From IMG/VR virus record IMGVR_UViG_3300042455_001086, positions 1-64,000 of that record: 64,000 nucleotides of DNA; one strand, given 5' to 3'. Source of the DNA: a virus. Positions 14,400 to 52,901 of the stretch are shown here, one piece after another. Under the pieces are notes generated by a model that worked only from the letters and a program-made list of their open reading frames with translations, was not told where the DNA came from and ran no database searches. Numbering within the stretch: position 1 is the first letter of the stretch; every line of letters starts with the position of its first letter. Made by a program: the position numbers and the translations under genes.

Positions 14400-17300
14400 T
14401 TACCCATTTAGTAATTTGTCCAATTCTTTTTCAATATCACCCAATGAATTACGACCTTTTGATAGATCAATATATTCATCTTCGACCAAATCATTACTCT
14501 CAAGTAAGATGTTAAAGTTTCTTTTTTCTACACTATCCATCATTGGTTCTCCTCCTCCTGGTGGTGGGGGTGGTGCTCCTTCTCCTCCTGGTGGTGGGGG
14601 TGGTGCTCCTCCTGCTGTTACAGTTTCACCCGATACTGTTTTATATAATTTATCAATATTATCAAACATACCAGTTTTAGTAATTACGGTTGCGGTATTT
14701 GCTAGCTCAGCGGCAACAGCTCTTTCTAATCTTATTTGTTGTATTTCAAGTTTAATTTCTTCGTCGGAGAACCCAAATATGTGTTTTTTAGCCCAAGTTG
14801 CAGAAGTTGGTTGTAATGTGTTTGCAATTTCTGTAACCATATCTTTATACAATAAAACTTTTTCTTTCCAAACTGAAACCATAAGTAAATCAGCTTGTTT
14901 TGAGGGATTAGTAAGTCCTAGAGTAAAGTTGTGTAGTTCGTCTTCAAAACCTAATAAAAATAAATGAATGATTGCAATTTTATTCAGTTCGGCAATCATA
15001 CTTTTTTGTATTTTATTTATGGTTCTAGCAAAACGAATATCAAGTAATGATAGATTATCACCATTTCCAACCGGTTCTTCAAAACCTAAAAATGCTTTTG
15101 GTATTCTTAACGCTGTTACAAGTTTCTTTTGGATATATTCAATATCGGCAATCTCCGATAAGTTTTGAGCACCAGGTAATGTTTCAATTGGCATAGTTGC
15201 CGCTGGATCTCTAACAGGAATAAAATAATCTTGATCTACGGCCATTTGATTAAATCTTAAATCAACATTACCAGTTTTAGAATCAACAACCTGATCCCTT
15301 TTAAATTTGTTTGCAACTCTTTGTACATAAGCCTCAACATCCTTATCATCCATATTTCCAACAAACACTTTAAACACCCTTCTTTCTGGTGCTCTTGATG
15401 TTCTATATATTAACATCGCATCTTCAGCCAAAACAAGTTGTTTCCAAATTCTACGAGCTTTTTCAAGCATTGATGTTCCGTATGGAAGTTTTCTATCATC
15501 ACCTAATAATCTGAAATGAGCCATTTCCCAAGTGTTAAACTCCATGTCTTTGTTTTTCCAAACAAACTTTAAATTTTTATTTTTGAATTGAACTTCAGGA
15601 CCCAAAACCGAATTCATAGTTCTGGCTTCCATTCCTCTTTCTAGTCTTTCAATTTCTATGTTTGGTAGTTGAAGACAGCCGACAACACCTTTTTCTGGGT
15701 CTAATTTTAAATAAACGAAATTATCGCCATATTTACAGTTGGACAAAAACACACCGGTTTCTCTTGAATGATTACCATTTACATCAAAACCACAGACTGG
15801 GAAATTATGTCTATCATGTTCTCCGTTCGGACCAACAGCTTCTAAACAATAAACATCAGATGTTTCATCTAACTTAATTACTGAAACAACTTTATGGTTA
15901 ATAACTTTTACTTTAGTTTTTCCTTCAAAAATTGACTTAGCTTTAATATATTTTTCATCTAAAATAATTTCTGGTTTAATATCAGATATAAAATCAAAAT
16001 AATTTTTATTTGTTTTTCTTAAAATAACTTTTTTTAATGTTGTTGGATTAATTGATTTTGTGATATTTTTATTTAATTTATAATTTTCTTTGAATAGTTT
16101 GATAAACTCATTATCTGATTTGAGAATTTTTGACAACTCATTTACTCCCACATATGTCTCACAATTTTTAATTAAATTAGAAATATACGATAAACAAGTA
16201 TCATTAATTTCAATTGTCATCCCCTTTTTTGTTTTTTCTATAAAATTATTATCTCTCCAATGATTTAACATTTTATTTGAACGAATTATATTGTGTTTGA
16301 CATGTAATTCACTATTATTATAATTTTCAAAATATCTATTATAGACACCAGTCATTTCTTTGGATAGTCTTTGTCTTCGTTTTTCTGAACGCAAATACCT
16401 ATCAATTCCATCCATTCTTTTTTTAACAACTTCTGGCGAACCTAATATTTTATTAAAATGTTCCACATGTAATTTAAAATGATCCGAATGTCTCATTCTA
16501 CTCAAATTTTTTGGGTGATTATTTAGTTTGTTAAAATCAATGTGATGTGTGTCAAATTGCTCACCAATTATTTTTTCATTTTCCAAATCTCTAACACATT
16601 CATGTGAAACCATTGTGTGGGTAAATTTATATTTTCCTGTACTTGGGTTAAATACCTTTTCATAACCGACAATTCGGTCTTTTTTCTTTTCACTTTTTTT
16701 AGTGTAAAACGGCATTAATGATTCACCTTTAGTTAATTTATCAGCTCGTTTAAATGACCCATCCCTAAGCATATATTCGTGATCTGGTGTCGTGTCAATA
16801 TATGTACCATCATCTAGTGTGACCCTATACAACTCACTATTTTTTCTAGTTAGGTCACACCATATAATTTTACTAGGAACAATTGCTTTAGTTCCATCTT
16901 GTATTGAGTAAGACCAAATCTCCTCACCATTCTTAATCCTATCACTCAATTCTTTTATTGATACTTCTGTACCATCTAATAATGGTATCATAGTATTCTC
17001 TCTAATTGGAGTGTTTCTTACCCACATTGGTAAATTGATTGATATGTCCAAAACATTATTAAACAAATCAGTTAAAATTGATTTGATTCTCTTTGATTCT
17101 GAATATATCTGTAGAACATAACCATCTTGATTTGGTGTTGTAGATTCCTCAGAATAAATGTCTAAAGCCGTTGATATTTCAGGAGTATTATGTGAAAATA
17201 TAGTATCAGTTGCAAAGTTTTTATATCCTGGAACTGTTAAATCATAAACAGGTATGACACCATTTTCTTCTATTGATACTATTTTATGATTAAATACTAA

Positions 17301-18422
17301 TGTGTTTCCCTTACTTTTTACTGTTGCGTATATTGATTTTTTAATCCCGTATGCTTCTAAAAATGTGGACCAATCTTTATACCCACTATTTACGATTTCT
17401 CTTTGTATTTTTCTATATGATACATTTAATTTTTTTGCAGTACCCTTTAATGTTTTTATTTCTCTGGCGGTTTCTATGATACTATCAAAAGGTATTTTAA
17501 AGTAAGCTGGGTTATTAATACCACTTCTCTTACCATCCCAACTATGTTCACCTGTTCTTTTTGCAACTTCAGACATTTTTTGTCTATACTCTGGGTTTGT
17601 CCACAATTTTTCGTTGTTTAATCTTGCGTGATAAGCTCTATGTTCGGAAATATTCATTATTTGTAAATTTTCCGGTTTGTTATTTTTACCGTTAAAATCT
17701 ATATGATGAACTTCTTCATCTTTGTTAATTTTTTTACCATAAAACCATTCTGCAATTAAATTATGTTCCGAAACCCATCCATTATGACCTTCTTCTGAAT
17801 TACAAGTATATACCCAATTATATTTTTCATTATTGTAAAATGATTTTCTATAAAAAGGCATCATTGAGTCCCCTTCTTTTAAGTTCATTACACGTTCAAA
17901 TGAACCATCTCTTTTCATTAGTTGATGTTCCCATGTTGTTACAATATATGAACCGTCGTCAAATGTAATTTTATATGTCATTTCATCTCTCGTATAATGA
18001 GCATTTCTAGCTAAAGCCGGAACAACTTTTTTTAAATTGTGGTCATATGCGTACGTAATAAATTCATAATCTCTACCTTTTTCGGCTAATTCTTTAATTG
18101 TTATAAAACCATCTGTGGTTGCGATTTTAGTATCTCCCGCAATACAATATTCCATTGATTCATAATCATAAAAAGCCGCAATTCTATTAGGTTCATAATA
18201 CACCGCTTGAGCATATAAATTATTCTCAATTTTTTGCCATTGATTACTTAAAAATAAACTTTGTTGGTATTCTAATTTTTCTTTTTCGTATTCTTGTTTA
18301 TCTGTTGTTTTTAATAAAACCGTTTTATCCAATTTAACTGTTGGTTGGTCTAGATTCAAAAGTGAGTTGGGGCCAAATGTTTTGGATAATTTCTGCCATA
18401 TTGTCAAGTTATTTTTTTCCAT
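14400..18422 (-). CDS. Portal protein (gp20-like) containing two inteins
   Basis: 1340 residues as encoded and about 596 after removal of two inteins (residues 93-412 and 472-895), close to T4 gp20 size. Extein signatures: NRIAAFYDYESMEY | TPEISTALDIYSEES, LPMWVRNT | CKYGDNFVYLKLDP, then ARRIWKQLVLAEDAMLIYR and APERRVFKVFVGNM, all typical of T4-like portals. The C-terminus has two Gly/Pro-rich repeats from a 30-bp duplication. The portal forms the dodecameric DNA channel at the head vertex. It follows the terminase and the 316-residue gene. Confidence 0.92.
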   Translation of the reverse strand: MEKNNLTIWQKLSKTFGPNSLLNLDQPTVKLDKTVLLKTTDKQEYEKEKLEYQQSLFLSNQWQKIENNLYAQAVYYEPNRIAAFYDYESMEYCIAGDTKIATTDGFITIKELAEKGRDYEFITYAYDHNLKKVVPALARNAHYTRDEMTYKITFDDGSYIVTTWEHQLMKRDGSFERVMNLKEGDSMMPFYRKSFYNNEKYNWVYTCNSEEGHNGWVSEHNLIAEWFYGKKINKDEEVHHIDFNGKNNKPENLQIMNISEHRAYHARLNNEKLWTNPEYRQKMSEVAKRTGEHSWDGKRSGINNPAYFKIPFDSIIETAREIKTLKGTAKKLNVSYRKIQREIVNSGYKDWSTFLEAYGIKKSIYATVKSKGNTLVFNHKIVSIEENGVIPVYDLTVPGYKNFATDTIFSHNTPEISTALDIYSEESTTPNQDGYVLQIYSESKRIKSILTDLFNNVLDISINLPMWVRNTPIRENTMIPLLDGTEVSIKELSDRIKNGEEIWSYSIQDGTKAIVPSKIIWCDLTRKNSELYRVTLDDGTYIDTTPDHEYMLRDGSFKRADKLTKGESLMPFYTKKSEKKKDRIVGYEKVFNPSTGKYKFTHTMVSHECVRDLENEKIIGEQFDTHHIDFNKLNNHPKNLSRMRHSDHFKLHVEHFNKILGSPEVVKKRMDGIDRYLRSEKRRQRLSKEMTGVYNRYFENYNNSELHVKHNIIRSNKMLNHWRDNNFIEKTKKGMTIEINDTCLSYISNLIKNCETYVGVNELSKILKSDNEFIKLFKENYKLNKNITKSINPTTLKKVILRKTNKNYFDFISDIKPEIILDEKYIKAKSIFEGKTKVKVINHKVVSVIKLDETSDVYCLEAVGPNGEHDRHNFPVCGFDVNGNHSRETGVFLSNCKYGDNFVYLKLDPEKGVVGCLQLPNIEIERLERGMEARTMNSVLGPEVQFKNKNLKFVWKNKDMEFNTWEMAHFRLLGDDRKLPYGTSMLEKARRIWKQLVLAEDAMLIYRTSRAPERRVFKVFVGNMDDKDVEAYVQRVANKFKRDQVVDSKTGNVDLRFNQMAVDQDYFIPVRDPAATMPIETLPGAQNLSEIADIEYIQKKLVTALRIPKAFLGFEEPVGNGDNLSLLDIRFARTINKIQKSMIAELNKIAIIHLFLLGFEDELHNFTLGLTNPSKQADLLMVSVWKEKVLLYKDMVTEIANTLQPTSATWAKKHIFGFSDEEIKLEIQQIRLERAVAAELANTATVITKTGMFDNIDKLYKTVSGETVTAGGAPPPPPGGEGAPPPPPGGGEPMMDSVEKRNFNILLESNDLVEDEYIDLSKGRNSLGDIEKELDKLLNG
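14551..14610 (-). repeat. 30-bp tandem duplication (Gly/Pro repeat) in portal C-terminus
   Basis: Two adjacent 30-bp copies (14551-14580 and 14581-14610) that differ at one base encode an Ala-Pro5-Gly2-type repeat. Confidence 0.85.
15738..17009 (-). other. Intein 2 in portal, HNH type, apparently starting with Pro
   Basis: Residues 472-895. The block A spacing (P-I-R-E-N-T-M-I) places Pro at position 1 where Cys or Ser is normal. Block B is TTPDHEYML and the HNH motif is HHIDFNKLNNHPKNL. The C-terminus is FLSN with +1 Cys, so the penultimate residue is Ser, not His. Splicing gives RNT|CKYGDNF, a natural portal sequence, which supports the junction assignment. Confidence 0.8.
17187..18146 (-). 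other. Intein 1 in portal, with HNH endonuclease
   Basis: Residues 93-412. Block A: C-I-A-G-D-T-K-I. Block B: VTTWEHQL. The endonuclease motif HHIDFNGKNNKPENLQIM is HNH type. Blocks F/G: VYDLTVPGYKNF...FSHN, then +1 Thr. Class 1 layout with Cys1 and terminal His-Asn. The extein junction EY|TPEIS restores a normal portal sequence. Confidence 0.9.
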
Positions 18423-19486: not shown

Positions 19487-22400
19487 CTATCTTTTACCAA
19501 ATAACCAACCATATTCCATATAATCTCTTCTTGACGGTCCGGAATTATTTCTATTAAATCTATCGTTATTAACTCCCATATTTGGTATTACAGGATCAAA
19601 ATGAATTTGTTTTCCAATATTATCATTATTTGCAACAGTCCAAGATTCAATCATTATTTTTGTTTTTTCTGTAACTTTTTCAAGTTTTGAGAATGATGAC
19701 TCACCAACATATATTGCCATTGATATACCCATTATAAGATCATCGTGTTGTCCTTTTTGGTGATCTGGCCTTCCGTTTATATAGACAAACGTATTCATCT
19801 CATTATACAAACGAACACTTCTGATTTTAAATTTATGTCTTACATATTCCTCAAATGCCGCAATAATTTGAACTCTTTTGTTATTAAAATTTATTCCTGG
19901 TATTTTATCTGCCGATGTTTTATTAACAGCCCAAATATTCATAGAATCAACACCATCAATATAAAGGTTTTTATATCCAAGTTCTTGCATTTTTCTTACA
20001 GTTGTGATTCCCATACCACCGGTGATATCCACAACACAAAATGCGTTATACATTATCCCCCATTTATACGCAATTTCAGCTAAAGCATCAGGAGGGATCT
20101 TTCCAACATATTCTAATACTTGTTCTCTTTCATCAAAATCAATAATCTGGAGTGAGGAAAAGTCCTCACTATCACCACGAGAAACATCACAGTTGTGTGT
20201 GGTAATGTGGTGACACATAAAAGTATGTGTTTCACACTCAAAGTTATACACATTTCCAGTAAATTGATTCTTATCAATATCTTTAATCCTAAAGTAAATA
20301 TATTTATTATCCTTACTAAAATGACACCCACTTATAATCCTTTTATTATTAATACTAAAATCACTTAACTCAAATCTATTTAATTTGGGGTCAAGTTTAT
20401 CATTATTCAAAATTTTAATTAAATCCAAACTATCTTGATTTGATAATGATAAACTGTATGTTTCTTTATGTTTTATAGTTTTACCCTTTATTTGTGATTG
20501 TTTTTCATTTCGTAACTTACTTAACGATGAAACAACACCAAATGAAAACAATATGTCTTGGATTGACTCCAATAGTTCCAAATTTATACTAACAAATGTT
20601 ATTTTAGAATTTACTTTACCTTTTTTTTTGGTTTTCAACCAACAACCGTCACTAGCTAAATAACCTTTTATCAATTCAATTTTATATTCTTTAGGTATAA
20701 ATTTAACCCATTCTGATATTTTTTTACCATATGAATATTTACCAAAATTTTCTAATATAAAATGATATAGAAATTTTGAATTAAACACTAATTCATAACT
20801 ATTCTGATCTTTATCAAAAAATGACGGACTTCTGTCAAATAATCTTTTTATTATATTTTTTGTTTTATCCAAATAATACAAATCTTTAGAATCAAAACAG
20901 ATATTTATTGTAAAACTATGACCAACATCATACATACAACCATCACCTAACCACATACCTATAAACCACCAAAAATCTTTATCCTTTAATGGTGATTTAA
21001 TATTAAAATCGGTTCTAATATTTTCAGAAATAACCCATTTATCCTCTAATATATTTTCAATTTCTTTATTATAAATATTCGGAGTTTTAACCCAATCACC
21101 AACCTCAACTTCCTCAACCCTTGTGTATTTAAAATTAAAATCCCAATATCTTTCATTAAAATCTAATGAATTATGTTTTTTACTATAATTACGTTTTAAA
21201 ACTGGATTACTTATTAACAACGGATGTTCTTTTGTGAATGTCGTTTTTCTAAAAGTGTTGTCGACCTTAATTGTAAAAATATCCTCATCAACGACTGGGT
21301 ATATTTGTTTATTATAAATCTTAACATATTCACCATTTTCACTAACTAACTTATCATCTAATGTAACATCTTCAATATTTTTTAACCCACAATCAGTTAA
21401 TACTTTTTCACTAGGTGGCAAACAACCTAAAATGTATTTATGTCCCGGTACTGGTTCTTTCCAAATCCAAAGAGCATTACCCATCATTTTTGTTGGAGCT
21501 TCTTGTATTGTGTTTTGTTTTATGTAATCAAGTTGTTTTCCGTCAAATACATTATCTCCAGACCCTAAAAATTCACAATTTAACTCTTGGTTAATTTTTC
21601 TTTTATCGTATTTTAATTTTTTAACCATCTTCTCATACCAAGTAGAACATGGTTTATATCCTTGTGAAAAATATTCTCTTATTTTCTCATAATCCCTATT
21701 ATATGGATCCGAGTCCTCAAATGATATATTCCCAGAATGATCTCTTTCATCTTTATTAAGTAGATAATCAACCATATCATCAGTTGGAACTAAATATAAA
21801 TCTTTTGAATATCTTGGGTCTTTCCACCAAAACATTTCAGAAATTTTAAAATTGTTAATTCCTTTATTTGCCTGATTATATATTTCATAATAAATTGGAT
21901 CATAACCGTTTGGTGTTGAAACAACAATAACTTTACCACCGGTAGATAGGGACGCCATACAAGCTGCCCAGAAATCACCATCAGCTTCGATAAACGCCGC
22001 CTCATCAAATACAAGTATTGTTGGTGTATAACCCCTCAACGCATCTCGTGATGTTGCAACAGCTTTAACTTCACAACCATTTGTTAGTTTATAGTGTCTT
22101 TGTGAGTTTTTATCAGCTGAAAATCCGGTTCCAACCCAAGAAGGCCATTGTTCTACAAAGGCTCTAATTTTATTTGCCATCTCCATTGATGTATCAAGTT
22201 TGTTGGCAATAATCAATATTTTTTCTGGTCGTTCTTTTTTTGCAAAAACCAGTCTTTTTGATATCCAAGCAGCGGTTACTGTTGATACACCAGCCTGACG
22301 ATATTTTAAAGCTATATTTTCTTCAAAATCTTCATAATCTTTAAGTAGTGATATTTGATCTGGAAATAACTCTAATGGTACATATTTGGAAACGGTATTA

Positions 22401-22492
22401 TCATATGTTTGTAAATATGTTCTTAAAGCATATGGAGTGTCTTTCATACATCTCACATACTCCAACATCACCTGTTCTTTTGTTAAACCCAT
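19487..22492 (-). CDS. Large terminase subunit (gp17-like) with one intein
   Basis: 1001 residues, about 590 after splicing. ATPase domain: a deviant Walker A ALKYRQAGVSTVTAAW (Lys placed before RQ, as in some terminases), Walker B ILVFDEAAF, and motif III VVSTPNG. The nuclease domain begins HKYILG | CDVSRGDSEDFS, with the first catalytic Asp right after the intein, and continues VVDITGGMG and DHQKGQHDDLIMGISMA. It packages DNA through the portal. It lies upstream of the portal with one gene between. Confidence 0.92.
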   Translation of the reverse strand: MGLTKEQVMLEYVRCMKDTPYALRTYLQTYDNTVSKYVPLELFPDQISLLKDYEDFEENIALKYRQAGVSTVTAAWISKRLVFAKKERPEKILIIANKLDTSMEMANKIRAFVEQWPSWVGTGFSADKNSQRHYKLTNGCEVKAVATSRDALRGYTPTILVFDEAAFIEADGDFWAACMASLSTGGKVIVVSTPNGYDPIYYEIYNQANKGINNFKISEMFWWKDPRYSKDLYLVPTDDMVDYLLNKDERDHSGNISFEDSDPYNRDYEKIREYFSQGYKPCSTWYEKMVKKLKYDKRKINQELNCEFLGSGDNVFDGKQLDYIKQNTIQEAPTKMMGNALWIWKEPVPGHKYILGCLPPSEKVLTDCGLKNIEDVTLDDKLVSENGEYVKIYNKQIYPVVDEDIFTIKVDNTFRKTTFTKEHPLLISNPVLKRNYSKKHNSLDFNERYWDFNFKYTRVEEVEVGDWVKTPNIYNKEIENILEDKWVISENIRTDFNIKSPLKDKDFWWFIGMWLGDGCMYDVGHSFTINICFDSKDLYYLDKTKNIIKRLFDRSPSFFDKDQNSYELVFNSKFLYHFILENFGKYSYGKKISEWVKFIPKEYKIELIKGYLASDGCWLKTKKKGKVNSKITFVSINLELLESIQDILFSFGVVSSLSKLRNEKQSQIKGKTIKHKETYSLSLSNQDSLDLIKILNNDKLDPKLNRFELSDFSINNKRIISGCHFSKDNKYIYFRIKDIDKNQFTGNVYNFECETHTFMCHHITTHNCDVSRGDSEDFSSLQIIDFDEREQVLEYVGKIPPDALAEIAYKWGIMYNAFCVVDITGGMGITTVRKMQELGYKNLYIDGVDSMNIWAVNKTSADKIPGINFNNKRVQIIAAFEEYVRHKFKIRSVRLYNEMNTFVYINGRPDHQKGQHDDLIMGISMAIYVGESSFSKLEKVTEKTKIMIESWTVANNDNIGKQIHFDPVIPNMGVNNDRFNRNNSGPSRRDYMEYGWLFGKR
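20192..21424 (-). other. LAGLIDADG intein in terminase nuclease domain
   Basis: Residues 357-767 (411 aa), Cys1. Block B: TFTKEHPLL. Two dodecapeptides: FIGMWLGDGC and LIKGYLASDGC. C-terminal block: VYNFECETHTFMCHHITTHN, with +1 Cys. It is inserted one residue before the catalytic Asp of the DVSRGD motif, so unspliced protein cannot be an active packaging nuclease. Confidence 0.9.
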
Positions 22493-38523: not shown

Positions 38524-38914
38524 GGGGGTGTTTTTGGATTTGACAGGTATTGGCTGAGGAATAAGGGCATGTAGGGACTAAGTTAATCTCTTTAAAAACT
38601 GACTTGGAAAACAACTGGCAATGTGCTAAACAAAATGGAAACTCTTGGATTAGTAAGAGGTTCTGAAGTTACTGTAGCTTAAGATAAGTTCGGAAACGGG
38701 GGGTCGGCAGACATATAACCTAGCAACAGAAGTCGTAGTTTGATAGAGCACACCGGATGGCTCTCTAAATCCGATTCGGGACCATTGGTTGTTGATTTAC
38801 GATGGTGAAGAACAAATCAACTATTTTGGGATATTAGAAAATATCAACCTAAACATGTAGTCCTTATCTGACAGGATATTATGGACCGGAGTTCGACTCT
38901 CCGCACCTCCACCA
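38524..38914 (+). ncRNA. ssrA: tmRNA (transfer-messenger RNA)
   Basis: 391 nt. The 5' GGGGGTG and 3' CACCTCC form a 7-bp acceptor stem with a G3.U70 pair (alanine identity), and CCA is encoded. The signature GGATTTGACAGG follows the 5' end. T-arm: CGGAG-TTCGACT-CTCCG. A frame ending ...GSEVTVA-stop (TAA at 38680-38682) is the most likely tag end; the usual LAA end is not seen, so the tag assignment is uncertain. It rescues stalled ribosomes and tags peptides for proteases such as ClpXP or ClpAP. The phage also encodes its own Clp ATPase. Confidence 0.92.
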
Positions 38915-41876: not shown

Positions 41877-42765
41877 CCAATTTTTTTTTAATAAGATCTT
41901 ATATTTTTAAAAAAAGCCTGAGATTACAGCTTGGTTTGAGAACCTTTTGAAGGATTATTTTTTCCCTTCGTATCCACCATCTTTTGAATGGTATTTCTCA
42001 GTGACGGTTTTTTAGGTATACCACTCCTTTAGGTTTGAATTACTCTCATCTTACTTGACTCTTTCCGAGGATGCCTCCCCAGTTCGTCCTTGCGGGATTA
42101 AAGGTTTTTCGGATAATTACACATCGACTTGGGATCTTTGTGTGCAATGAACGGCTCATTACTATGTAGTCACCTTTCATCCAAACCTGACGGACACTTT
42201 TCCTTTCTGTAGTTAATAATAGAATCATTACTTTCCATAAAGTATTTGTGTTGTGGATTGTGAAAGTAGTGGTCCGTCAACCAAGCCAACCCATCTTTTG
42301 AACGGATCGATACTTAACTACTCTCTGAAATGTCCCCATTTCCATATTTTTAGACTACTTCAAAACAATTCCCTTGGTAAGGAATAATTAGGGTTGGTAA
42401 CAGCACCATCTGTACACGAACATACCTTTCGGTTTTAAGTATCCTATTATATTGGAACACGCAATAATAAAATTGGATAATTCTATTTTTTGCAATATTC
42501 CTACGAGTTATTCCTATTGGTGTTCCCACCTCAAACTGACAACCCACATTGCCAGTTCATCTAACCACTTTCCCTACAGCGTTGCCCTCGGTACTAAAGG
42601 TTAAACGGTATCCCGCTTGTGTACTCAAGTTCAGTTACCCAAACCGCAAACCATTTACACGAATGATTCACTTTATCCCACTTTCGTGGTTTATTTTATG
42701 GACTATACACGGCCCAATATCTTTATCAGTTTCATTTCTTACTCCTGAAAGGATAATCTAATTTT

Positions 42766-48646: not shown

Positions 48647-48727
48647 GAACTACCCATAGGACTCGAACCTACAACCTTCGGGCCGAAGTAGACCCGTGTG
48701 CAAACCAAATTTACACCATAAGTAGTT
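48647..48727 (-). tRNA. tRNA-like gene, isotype unclear
   Basis: Acceptor AACTACT/GGTAGTT, T-arm GTAGG-TTCGAGT-CCTAT, D-stem GTGT/GCAC with GG in its loop. The anticodon arm closes as CGGG/CCCG with a non-standard loop. Confidence 0.5.
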
Positions 48728-50488: not shown

Positions 50489-51115
50489 TTATTTTTTTCT
50501 TCTGTAAACCTCACCTTTATAGTGTTTATCAACAAATCTTTTTACTTGTGAATGTGTTAAACCTAAAATATCAGATACTTTTTTTACCCACCCATACGTT
50601 GTCATATCAACACCTTTAATTAAATCTAACCTTTCACTAACAATATCTTCAGTCAATTTATTAAAACCACCGAATTTATCACCCATTTTTTTTGCATTAT
50701 TAATTCTAAATTCTAAAGGTACCGATTCCCAAGTTTTTTTTCTTTTTTCTTTGTTATCCCACGAGCCGGCAATACTTCCATATTTTAATCCGTGTAACCG
50801 TCTTTTTTCTTCTGTCCAATAATTTTTATTTACATGATCAAAAGAACCTAAACCACCCAAAGAAATGTTATATGTGTTTTTATTAGTTACAAAACTTTCA
50901 TTAACTATTTCACTTTCCATCTGAAACATTTGTGTTGGGTTGTCGAATATTGCTAAATATTTTTTATCAAAGTTATTAATCCCGTATTTTTTAATAGCAT
51001 CTTTTATGTTTTTTCCAGAACCCATATACCCATCGTTAATATTATCAGTTTTATGTACACCAACATAAATCTTACCATTAACTTTATTTCTTATTTCATA
51101 AACTATGTATTTCAT
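50489..51115 (-). CDS. GIY-YIG homing endonuclease
   Basis: 208 residues. Core YIVYEIRNKVNGKIYVGVHK with GSGKNIKDAIKKYGINNF, a typical large-phage GIY-YIG domain. A middle linker has NUMOD-like lysine-rich helices and the C-terminus an HTH-like SDILGLTHSQVKRFVDKHY. Inserted upstream of tRNA-Ile. Confidence 0.85.
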   Translation of the reverse strand: MKYIVYEIRNKVNGKIYVGVHKTDNINDGYMGSGKNIKDAIKKYGINNFDKKYLAIFDNPTQMFQMESEIVNESFVTNKNTYNISLGGLGSFDHVNKNYWTEEKRRLHGLKYGSIAGSWDNKEKRKKTWESVPLEFRINNAKKMGDKFGGFNKLTEDIVSERLDLIKGVDMTTYGWVKKVSDILGLTHSQVKRFVDKHYKGEVYRRKK

Positions 51116-52195: not shown

Positions 52196-52302
52196 TAGTC
52201 AAAGAAGGATTCGAACCTATCACGAGATAAGTGTGAAATTCACCTTATCCCAAGGACTTTTGAGTATTGTGTCCCAGCGTCTACCAATTCCGCCACTTGA
52301 CT
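52196..52302 (-). tRNA. tRNA-Leu(CAA)-like with enlarged anticodon loop
   Basis: Acceptor AGTCAAG/TTTGACT, D-arm GGCGGAATTGGTAGACGC. The anticodon stem GGGAC/GTCCT encloses a 13-nt loop ending CTCAAAA, 6 nt too long. Very long variable arm. T-stem only 3 bp. Confidence 0.55.
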
Positions 52303-52525: not shown

Positions 52526-52817
52526 TACTTGGAGCGGGAATCGAACCCGCACGGGCAAATGCCCACAGGATTTTCTTACCACTATAGTTTTCACTACCAA
52601 CCAAATTGTTGTTTGTGGTCTGGACTATACCTTAACCTTATCTTTTTAGACTTAGGTTCTCCGTGTCTAGTCTCTACACCTTACTCATTTCTGAGTCTTG
52701 GCTCGGTATTCCCATTTTAAAAGGTTCACCGAATTTACGGAGTTCTACTCAGAGGGTTTCCACTCTGGCACTCAAATTATATAAGTCCGGCGTGTCTACC
52801 TATTCCACCACCCAAGC
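52526..52817 (-). tRNA. tRNA-Leu(TAA) interrupted by a group I intron
   Basis: Exons 52783-52817 and 52526-52574. The spliced anticodon loop CTTAAAA (TAA) is on GGA/TCC. Acceptor GCTTGGG/TCCAAGT, T-arm GCGGG-TTCGATT-CCCGC. The intron follows U34, the same site as in cyanobacterial tRNA-Leu(UAA). Confidence 0.85.
52575..52782 (-). other. Group I intron (208 nt) in tRNA-Leu(TAA)
   Basis: Conserved core elements are visible on the minus strand: AGAGACTAGACACGG (R) and AAGGTATAGTCC (S). The terminal G is at 52575. No ORF inside. Confidence 0.85.
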
Positions 52818-52842: not shown

Positions 52843-52901
52843 TTGTCTTTTGTTTTACAAATATAAAAACTTTTTTTCAATTACACAATACCCTTAAACG
52901 A

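What the first reader, a model, noticed from the sequence alone, without database searches (positions are those of the whole stretch)
52526..52817. Group I intron in phage tRNA-Leu(UAA)
A 208-nt intron interrupts the anticodon after U34, the same site as the cyanobacterial and plastid tRNA-Leu intron. R and S core sequences are recognisable. Such an intron in a phage tRNA of a Bacteroidetes-type host suggests transfer or an independent lineage.
Basis: partly seen in the sequence, partly recalled or inferred. Interest (0 to 1): 0.75.

Follow-up and report, generated by a model that had tools for sequence, protein, structure and literature searches.

The report
Self-splicing intron inside phage leucine tRNA
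A large, probably Bacteroidota-infecting phage carries a leucine tRNA gene split in the anticodon by a small self-splicing (group I) RNA intron; the intron is an ordinary member of a known bacterial family, but its presence in phage tRNA genes, which turns out to be common, is almost undescribed.

Summary
Window 52526-52817 (minus strand) is a tRNA-Leu(UAA) gene: a 35-nt 5' exon, a 208-nt intron after U34, and a 49-nt 3' exon. The intron is a complete group I ribozyme by sequence and fold: P1-P9, P3/P7 pseudoknot, U·G at the 5' splice site, terminal G, Rfam 53.7 bits (cut-off 50). Over 49 homologues 92% of cells pair and 40 of 57 pairs show two-sided changes. A syntenic sister phage (L472) lacks exactly these 208 nt; an uninterrupted phage tRNA (L459) matches the joined exons at 83 of 84 nt. 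So boundaries are firm, and the intron is present or absent between close phages. The window's intron groups (100/98) with phage and Bacteroidota introns, and a single phage clade is rejected. Transfer between phages and bacteria is the best reading; direction is open. Splicing was not shown. An ordinary member of a known kind, in a setting that a 2014 review said was unknown and that is barely described.

The parts
52783..52817 (-). 5' exon of tRNA-Leu(UAA): acceptor, D arm, anticodon 5' strand, ending C32 U33 U34
   Evidence: identical over 35 nt to the intronless phage tRNAs L459 and L469
52575..52782 (-). 208-nt group I intron; last base (52575) is the terminal G
   Evidence: Rfam 53.7 bits; covariation; exact empty site in L472/L445
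52526..52574 (-). 3' exon of tRNA-Leu(UAA): A35 A36 A37 A38, anticodon 3' strand, variable arm, T arm, acceptor
52768..52787 (-). P1: exon bases 52783-52787 pair with the guide sequence GAGUGC (52768-52773); splice-site U52783 pairs with G52773
   Evidence: U·G in 49 of 49 homologues
52750..52767 (-). P2 hairpin
   Evidence: 7 of 7 pairs with two-sided changes
52659..52742 (-). P3 (52737-52742 with 52659-52664), forming the pseudoknot with P7
   Evidence: 6 of 6 pairs with two-sided changes, 99.7% paired
52702..52733 (-). P4 (52728-52733 with 52702-52707) and short P5
   Evidence: P4 95.6% paired; P5 only 54% paired in this alignment
52679..52701 (-). P6 and P6a
   Evidence: 99% and 88% paired
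52623..52672 (-). P7 (GACUA 52668-52672 with UAGUC 52623-52627), the guanosine-site helix; holds R and S
   Evidence: 100% paired; outermost pair varies A-U 33, U-A 14, C-G 2
52634..52658 (-). P8 and its distal helix
   Evidence: 7 of 8 pairs of the main block with two-sided changes
52578..52619 (-). P9 (52615-52619 with 52578-52582) and P9b with GAAA loop (52584-52597)
   Evidence: 97-99% paired
52853..52865 (-). TAnnTTTG promoter-like box just upstream of the tRNA gene
   Evidence: consensus match only

Best explanation
This is a compact, endonuclease-free group I intron, of the type known from bacterial and plastid tRNA-Leu(UAA), inserted after U34 in a working phage tRNA-Leu(UAA) gene. After transcription the intron folds, binds guanosine at P7, cuts after U34 (U·G in P1) and joins the exons, giving a tRNA that reads UUA, the commonest leucine codon of this phage (inferred). 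The intron is mobile on an evolutionary scale. Relatives of it encode HNH homing endonucleases in both phages and bacteria, and this copy either lost its endonuclease or arrived without one (inferred). Its nearest kin lie in other phages and in Bacteroidota chromosomes, so it moved between phage and host tRNA genes; the direction is unknown. Shown: gene structure, fold, empty site, kinship. Inferred: splicing, homing, codon supply.
For: Exact tRNA exons and intron. Rfam above cut-off. Covariation through nearly all helices, with P7 100% paired. Sister phage contig L472 (304 kb) and L445 align to both flanks and break exactly at 52782/52574; L459 has an uninterrupted tRNA identical at 83 of 84 nt. 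11-row clade at 100/98: the window, two phage tRNA-Leu introns, one phage tRNA-Met intron and seven Bacteroidota introns. The Chitinophagia members lie beside tRNA-Gly and ordinary chromosomal genes. One clade of all phage introns is rejected, p-AU 0.007. HNH ORFs of one recognisable type in phage and bacterial tRNA-Leu introns. TTA is 52% of leucine codons.
Against: No RNA data, so splicing is not demonstrated. No endonuclease in the intron and no relative of one tested HNH type elsewhere in the 257-kb record, so present mobility is unsupported for this copy. The tree rests on 207 columns with the bootstrap not fully settled; placing the window beside cyanobacteria is not rejected (p-AU 0.488), so the deep branching is open. 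The bacterial kin are mostly metagenome bins. The anticodon stem has a C28·U42 mismatch, though intact relatives share it.
Confidence: 0.9

Rival explanations
1. The tRNA gene with its intron was captured whole from a Bacteroidota host chromosome and then inherited in this phage lineage, without intron mobility between phages.
For: Seven Bacteroidota introns share the 100/98 clade; window exons are up to 88% identical to some intron-bearing Bacteroidota tRNA-Leu genes (L247, L293).
Against: The closest exons are intronless phage tRNAs (L459 97.6%, L469, L472, L448), closer than any intron-bearing bacterial gene. The syntenic sister locus L472 is intronless at the same site, so the intron came or went within the phage lineage.
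Confidence: 0.15
2. The intron is a decayed remnant and the tRNA gene is dead; the phage relies on host tRNA-Leu(UAA).
For: No splicing data; C28·U42 mismatch; the phage tRNA array does contain odd genes.
Against: All core helices and invariant positions are intact; exons are nearly identical to an intact tRNA; TTA is the main leucine codon.
Confidence: 0.05
3. The intron is kept for a function: splicing gates tRNA-Leu maturation on guanosine supply, or the split anticodon shields the precursor from host anticodon nucleases.
For: The insertion splits the anticodon; same-site introns recur in many phages spread over the tree.
Against: Close phages do without it; recurrence is equally explained by a conserved target site and HNH homing. 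Nothing here tests a benefit.
Confidence: 0.07

Closest known systems
tRNA-Leu(UAA) group I introns of cyanobacteria and plastids (subgroup IC3)
   Same: Same site after U34; cyanobacterial members align over the full length with the same P1-P9 plan, GAAA-looped P9b and terminal G.
   Different: In a phage genome; P7 outer pair A-U rather than the cyanobacterial C-G; cyanobacterial introns form their own clade at 100/100. Plastid introns were not compared directly.
tRNA-Leu(UAA) introns in Bacteroidota chromosomes (L244, L301, L332, L261, L337, L266, L316)
   Same: In one 100/98 clade with the window.
   Different: In bacterial contigs; Chitinophagia copies have a longer 5' segment before the guide sequence.
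Same-site introns in other phages: LR756501 (735 kb), Agrobacterium phage Atu_ph07, IMG/VR L217 and L106
   Same: Same gene and site; LR756501 75.7% identical over gene and intron; L217 about 83% over 196 columns.
   Different: Other phages; many relatives carry an HNH gene in the intron.
'Enigmatic' tRNA introns of Lak megaphages (PMC6784885)
   Same: Phage tRNA introns; here Lak-C1 and Lak-B tRNA-Leu(UAA) prove to hold group I introns.
   Different: The main text names tRNA-Tyr and tRNA-Thr and does not call them group I; Lak tRNA-Leu seems to have two introns, one in the D loop.
Capsid-gene intron of Pelagibacter phage HTVC120P
   Same: 75.9% identical over the core, 151.5 bits to the tRNA-Leu intron model.
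   Different: Sits in a protein gene.

Membership tests
Group I intron | Conserved core with P3/P7 pseudoknot, P4-P6 and P8 | tested here: met
   P3 99.7%, P7 100%, P4 95.6%, P6 99% paired, with two-sided changes.
Group I intron | U·G pair at the 5' splice site and G as last intron base | tested here: met
   49 of 49 homologues.
Group I intron | Rfam RF00028 score above gathering cut-off | tested here: met
   53.7 against 50 bits; missed by the fast whole-window scan.
Group I intron | Guanosine-dependent self-splicing | not testable with these tools
   No RNA experiment or transcriptome.
Bacterial/plastid tRNA-Leu(UAA) intron family | Insertion after U34 of tRNA-Leu(UAA) | tested here: met
   empty sites in L472, L445, L459.
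Bacterial/plastid tRNA-Leu(UAA) intron family | Common descent with cyanobacterial and other bacterial members | tested here: met
   End-to-end alignment with 17 bacterial rows; tree. Deep branching order unresolved.
Subgroup IC3 | Best match to the IC3 model among group I subtype models | not tested
   Subtype models were not at hand; IC3 is inferred from the alignment with cyanobacterial tRNA-Leu introns.
Mobile (homing) group I intron | Encoded homing endonuclease | tested here: not met
   No room for one in 208 nt; one tested HNH type is absent from the record. Relatives do encode HNH.

The most novel reading that the evidence does not exclude
[quoted passage not shown] tRNA genes of huge phages are recurrent intron targets, with two introns in one tRNA-Leu gene in Lak phages.
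Probability: 0.4. Interest if true: 0.75.

Novelty: new member of a known kind. Interest (0 to 1): 0.5.

Why it matters
A 2014 review (PMC3984707) stated that all phage group I introns known then lay in protein genes despite many phage tRNA genes. Here they prove common in phage tRNA-Leu(UAA), intermixed with bacterial ones on the tree, which gives a possible vehicle for the horizontal spread of an intron used as a textbook case of ancient inheritance. ARAGORN and the default Rfam scan missed the gene, so phage tRNA sets are probably under-counted and UUA-decoding tRNAs wrongly scored as absent.

Tried and rejected
L361 as an empty-site control: syntenic, but its tRNA-Leu(UAA) is a different gene (66% identity), so it shows replacement, not a clean empty site. 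A P7 with a bulge and a P9a helix were tried first and dropped for the contiguous GACUA/UAGUC. The Bacteroidota promoter pattern counted alone is not above chance (10 against 5.9); only the repeated 32-mer is. The free-standing GIY-YIG gene nearby was considered as the intron's endonuclease; no evidence links them. A search of the own genome with a model trained on the family found no second intron; the window's own score there is by construction. The tree test of the window with cyanobacteria is uninformative, because the long cyanobacterial branch can be moved. Literature searches found no description of phage tRNA-Leu group I introns; the library lacks most subscription papers, so this is not proof of absence. 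The paper on the 735-kb phage does not mention introns.

Full report
Observation. Read on the minus strand, window 52817-52526 is GCTTGGGTGGTGGAATAGGTAGACACGCCGGACTT, 208 nt, then AAAATCCTGTGGGCATTTGCCCGTGCGGGTTCGATTCCCGCTCCAAGTA. Joined, it is an 84-nt tRNA-Leu with anticodon UAA. The intron follows U34 and ends in G. ARAGORN lists 24 tRNA genes in the window and not this one. Rfam at default filters misses the intron over the whole window but finds Intron_gpI at 53.7 bits, above the cut-off of 50, in a narrower search and in the genome search. The record is an IMG/VR virus contig of 257,166 bases; this is its only match to RF00028 and to a family-specific model.

Fold. I aligned the intron with short exon flanks from 49 loci and tested a structure drawn from the window sequence with P1, P2, P3, P4, P5, P6/P6a, P7, P8, P9 and P9b. 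92.0% of cells pair; sliding the partners by one to three columns gives 30-44%. 40 of 57 pairs have changes on both sides, 543 such cells against 162 in shuffles. The outer P7 pair is A-U 33, U-A 14, C-G 2 with no mismatch. The splice-site U·G is in all 49. Only P5 is weak. The structure was drawn from one of the sequences, which favours it over the slid versions in the share paired, less so in two-sided changes.

Boundaries and presence or absence. Intronless relatives were sought with the joined exon sequence. L459 has an uninterrupted tRNA identical at 83 of 84 nt, with flanks that do not align to the window. L472, in a 304-kb contig, and L445 are syntenic: their DNA aligns to the window on both sides (about 80% identity) and the alignment breaks exactly at 52782 and 52574. 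The intron is thus an insertion present in one phage and absent from its sister. Gain or loss cannot be told apart.

Spread. Named phages include LR756501 (735 kb), LR756511 and Atu_ph07. The genome scan gave 108 bacterial loci from many phyla; in 395 sampled Bacteroidota genomes the pattern hit 8, of which two are visibly false. Longer introns in both phages and bacteria hold HNH endonuclease ORFs with the same CPNCHA-type motif.

Kinship. In the careful tree (133 rows, 207 columns) the window lies in an 11-row clade at 100/98 with phage introns L217, L106 and L189 and seven Bacteroidota introns; cyanobacteria form one clade at 100/100. One clade of all phage introns is rejected (p-AU 0.007); window with all Bacteroidota is borderline rejected (0.0455); window with cyanobacteria is not rejected (0.488), so the deep order is open. 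The three Chitinophagia members lie beside tRNA-Gly (GCC) and chromosomal genes such as a class III aminotransferase, a trypsin-PDZ protease and a D-Ala ligase.

The phage. Portal, terminase and major head protein are recognisable. The nearest isolate capsids are of Flavobacterium phages at about 41% identity; one uncultured 484-kb phage is slightly nearer. Four near-identical TTTG-N20-TAnnTTTG boxes lie in the tRNA region. A Bacteroidota host is likely, not proven. TTA makes up 52% of leucine codons in 15 long ORFs, so a working tRNA-Leu(UAA) would serve the phage's main leucine codon.

Mechanism. From established group I biochemistry: guanosine binds at P7, attacks after U34 held in P1, and the freed exon attacks after the terminal G. 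P10 could form between UUU before the guide and the AAA that opens the 3' exon (inference). Splicing was not tested.

Literature. A 2014 review says all phage group I introns then known were in protein genes despite many phage tRNA genes (PMC3984707). Lak phage tRNA introns were reported in 2019 as the first in phages, without calling them group I in the main text (PMC6784885). The tRNAscan-SE authors note that group I introns hide bacterial tRNA genes (PMC8450103). I found no paper on phage tRNA-Leu(UAA) group I introns; the library is incomplete.

By-product. In Lak-C1 and the Lak-B phages tRNA-Leu(UAA) appears to hold two group I introns, one after GGU of the D loop and one at the anticodon. 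Joined, the three exons of Lak-C1 read as a complete tRNA. This rests on sequence only and deserves its own study.

Verdict. A real, well-bounded group I intron in a phage tRNA-Leu(UAA); ordinary as a ribozyme, notable for where it lives and for how common that proves to be.

Noticed in passing
L006 (Lak-C1, MK250029) about 879-1610; L007 (Lak-B1) same region: tRNA-Leu(UAA) apparently split twice: a group I intron after GGU of the D loop and a second one at the anticodon; the two-intron block is about 94-95% identical in nine Lak-B genomes.
   Followed up: partly
window 52196-52302 (-); L361 syntenic: tRNA-Leu(CAA)-like gene with six extra bases (ACAATA / ATAATA) before the anticodon loop; the stem pair closing the loop changes from C-G to G-C in the relative.
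   Followed up: partly
window 48647-48726 (-): tRNA with an 8-nt anticodon loop, read by ARAGORN as a four-base anticodon ACTT.
   Followed up: no
window 14400-18422 (-): T4-type portal protein ORF of 1,340 aa holding an intein splicing domain and an HNH domain.
   Followed up: no
window 19487-22492 (-): Terminase large subunit ORF of 1,001 aa interrupted by a LAGLIDADG-type insert, probably an intein.
   Followed up: no
window 41915-42325 (-) and 38524-38914 (+): GOLLD RNA (321.6 bits) and a phage-encoded tmRNA close to the tRNA array.
   Followed up: no
window 50489-51115 (-): Free-standing GIY-YIG endonuclease gene inside the tRNA array.
   Followed up: no
L361 3257-3337 (-): At the syntenic spot a close relative has an intronless tRNA-Leu(UAA) that is a different gene (66% identity) between conserved flanks: whole-tRNA replacement.
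   Followed up: partly
L354 1147-1358 (Pelagibacter phage HTVC120P): Capsid-gene intron of the same family as the tRNA-Leu introns, 151.5 bits to the tRNA-Leu model: possible jump between tRNA and protein gene.
   Followed up: no
L233 11600-11832 and 12876-13067 (-): Two group I introns of this family within 1.5 kb in one phage contig, one in a tRNA-Met-like gene.
   Followed up: no
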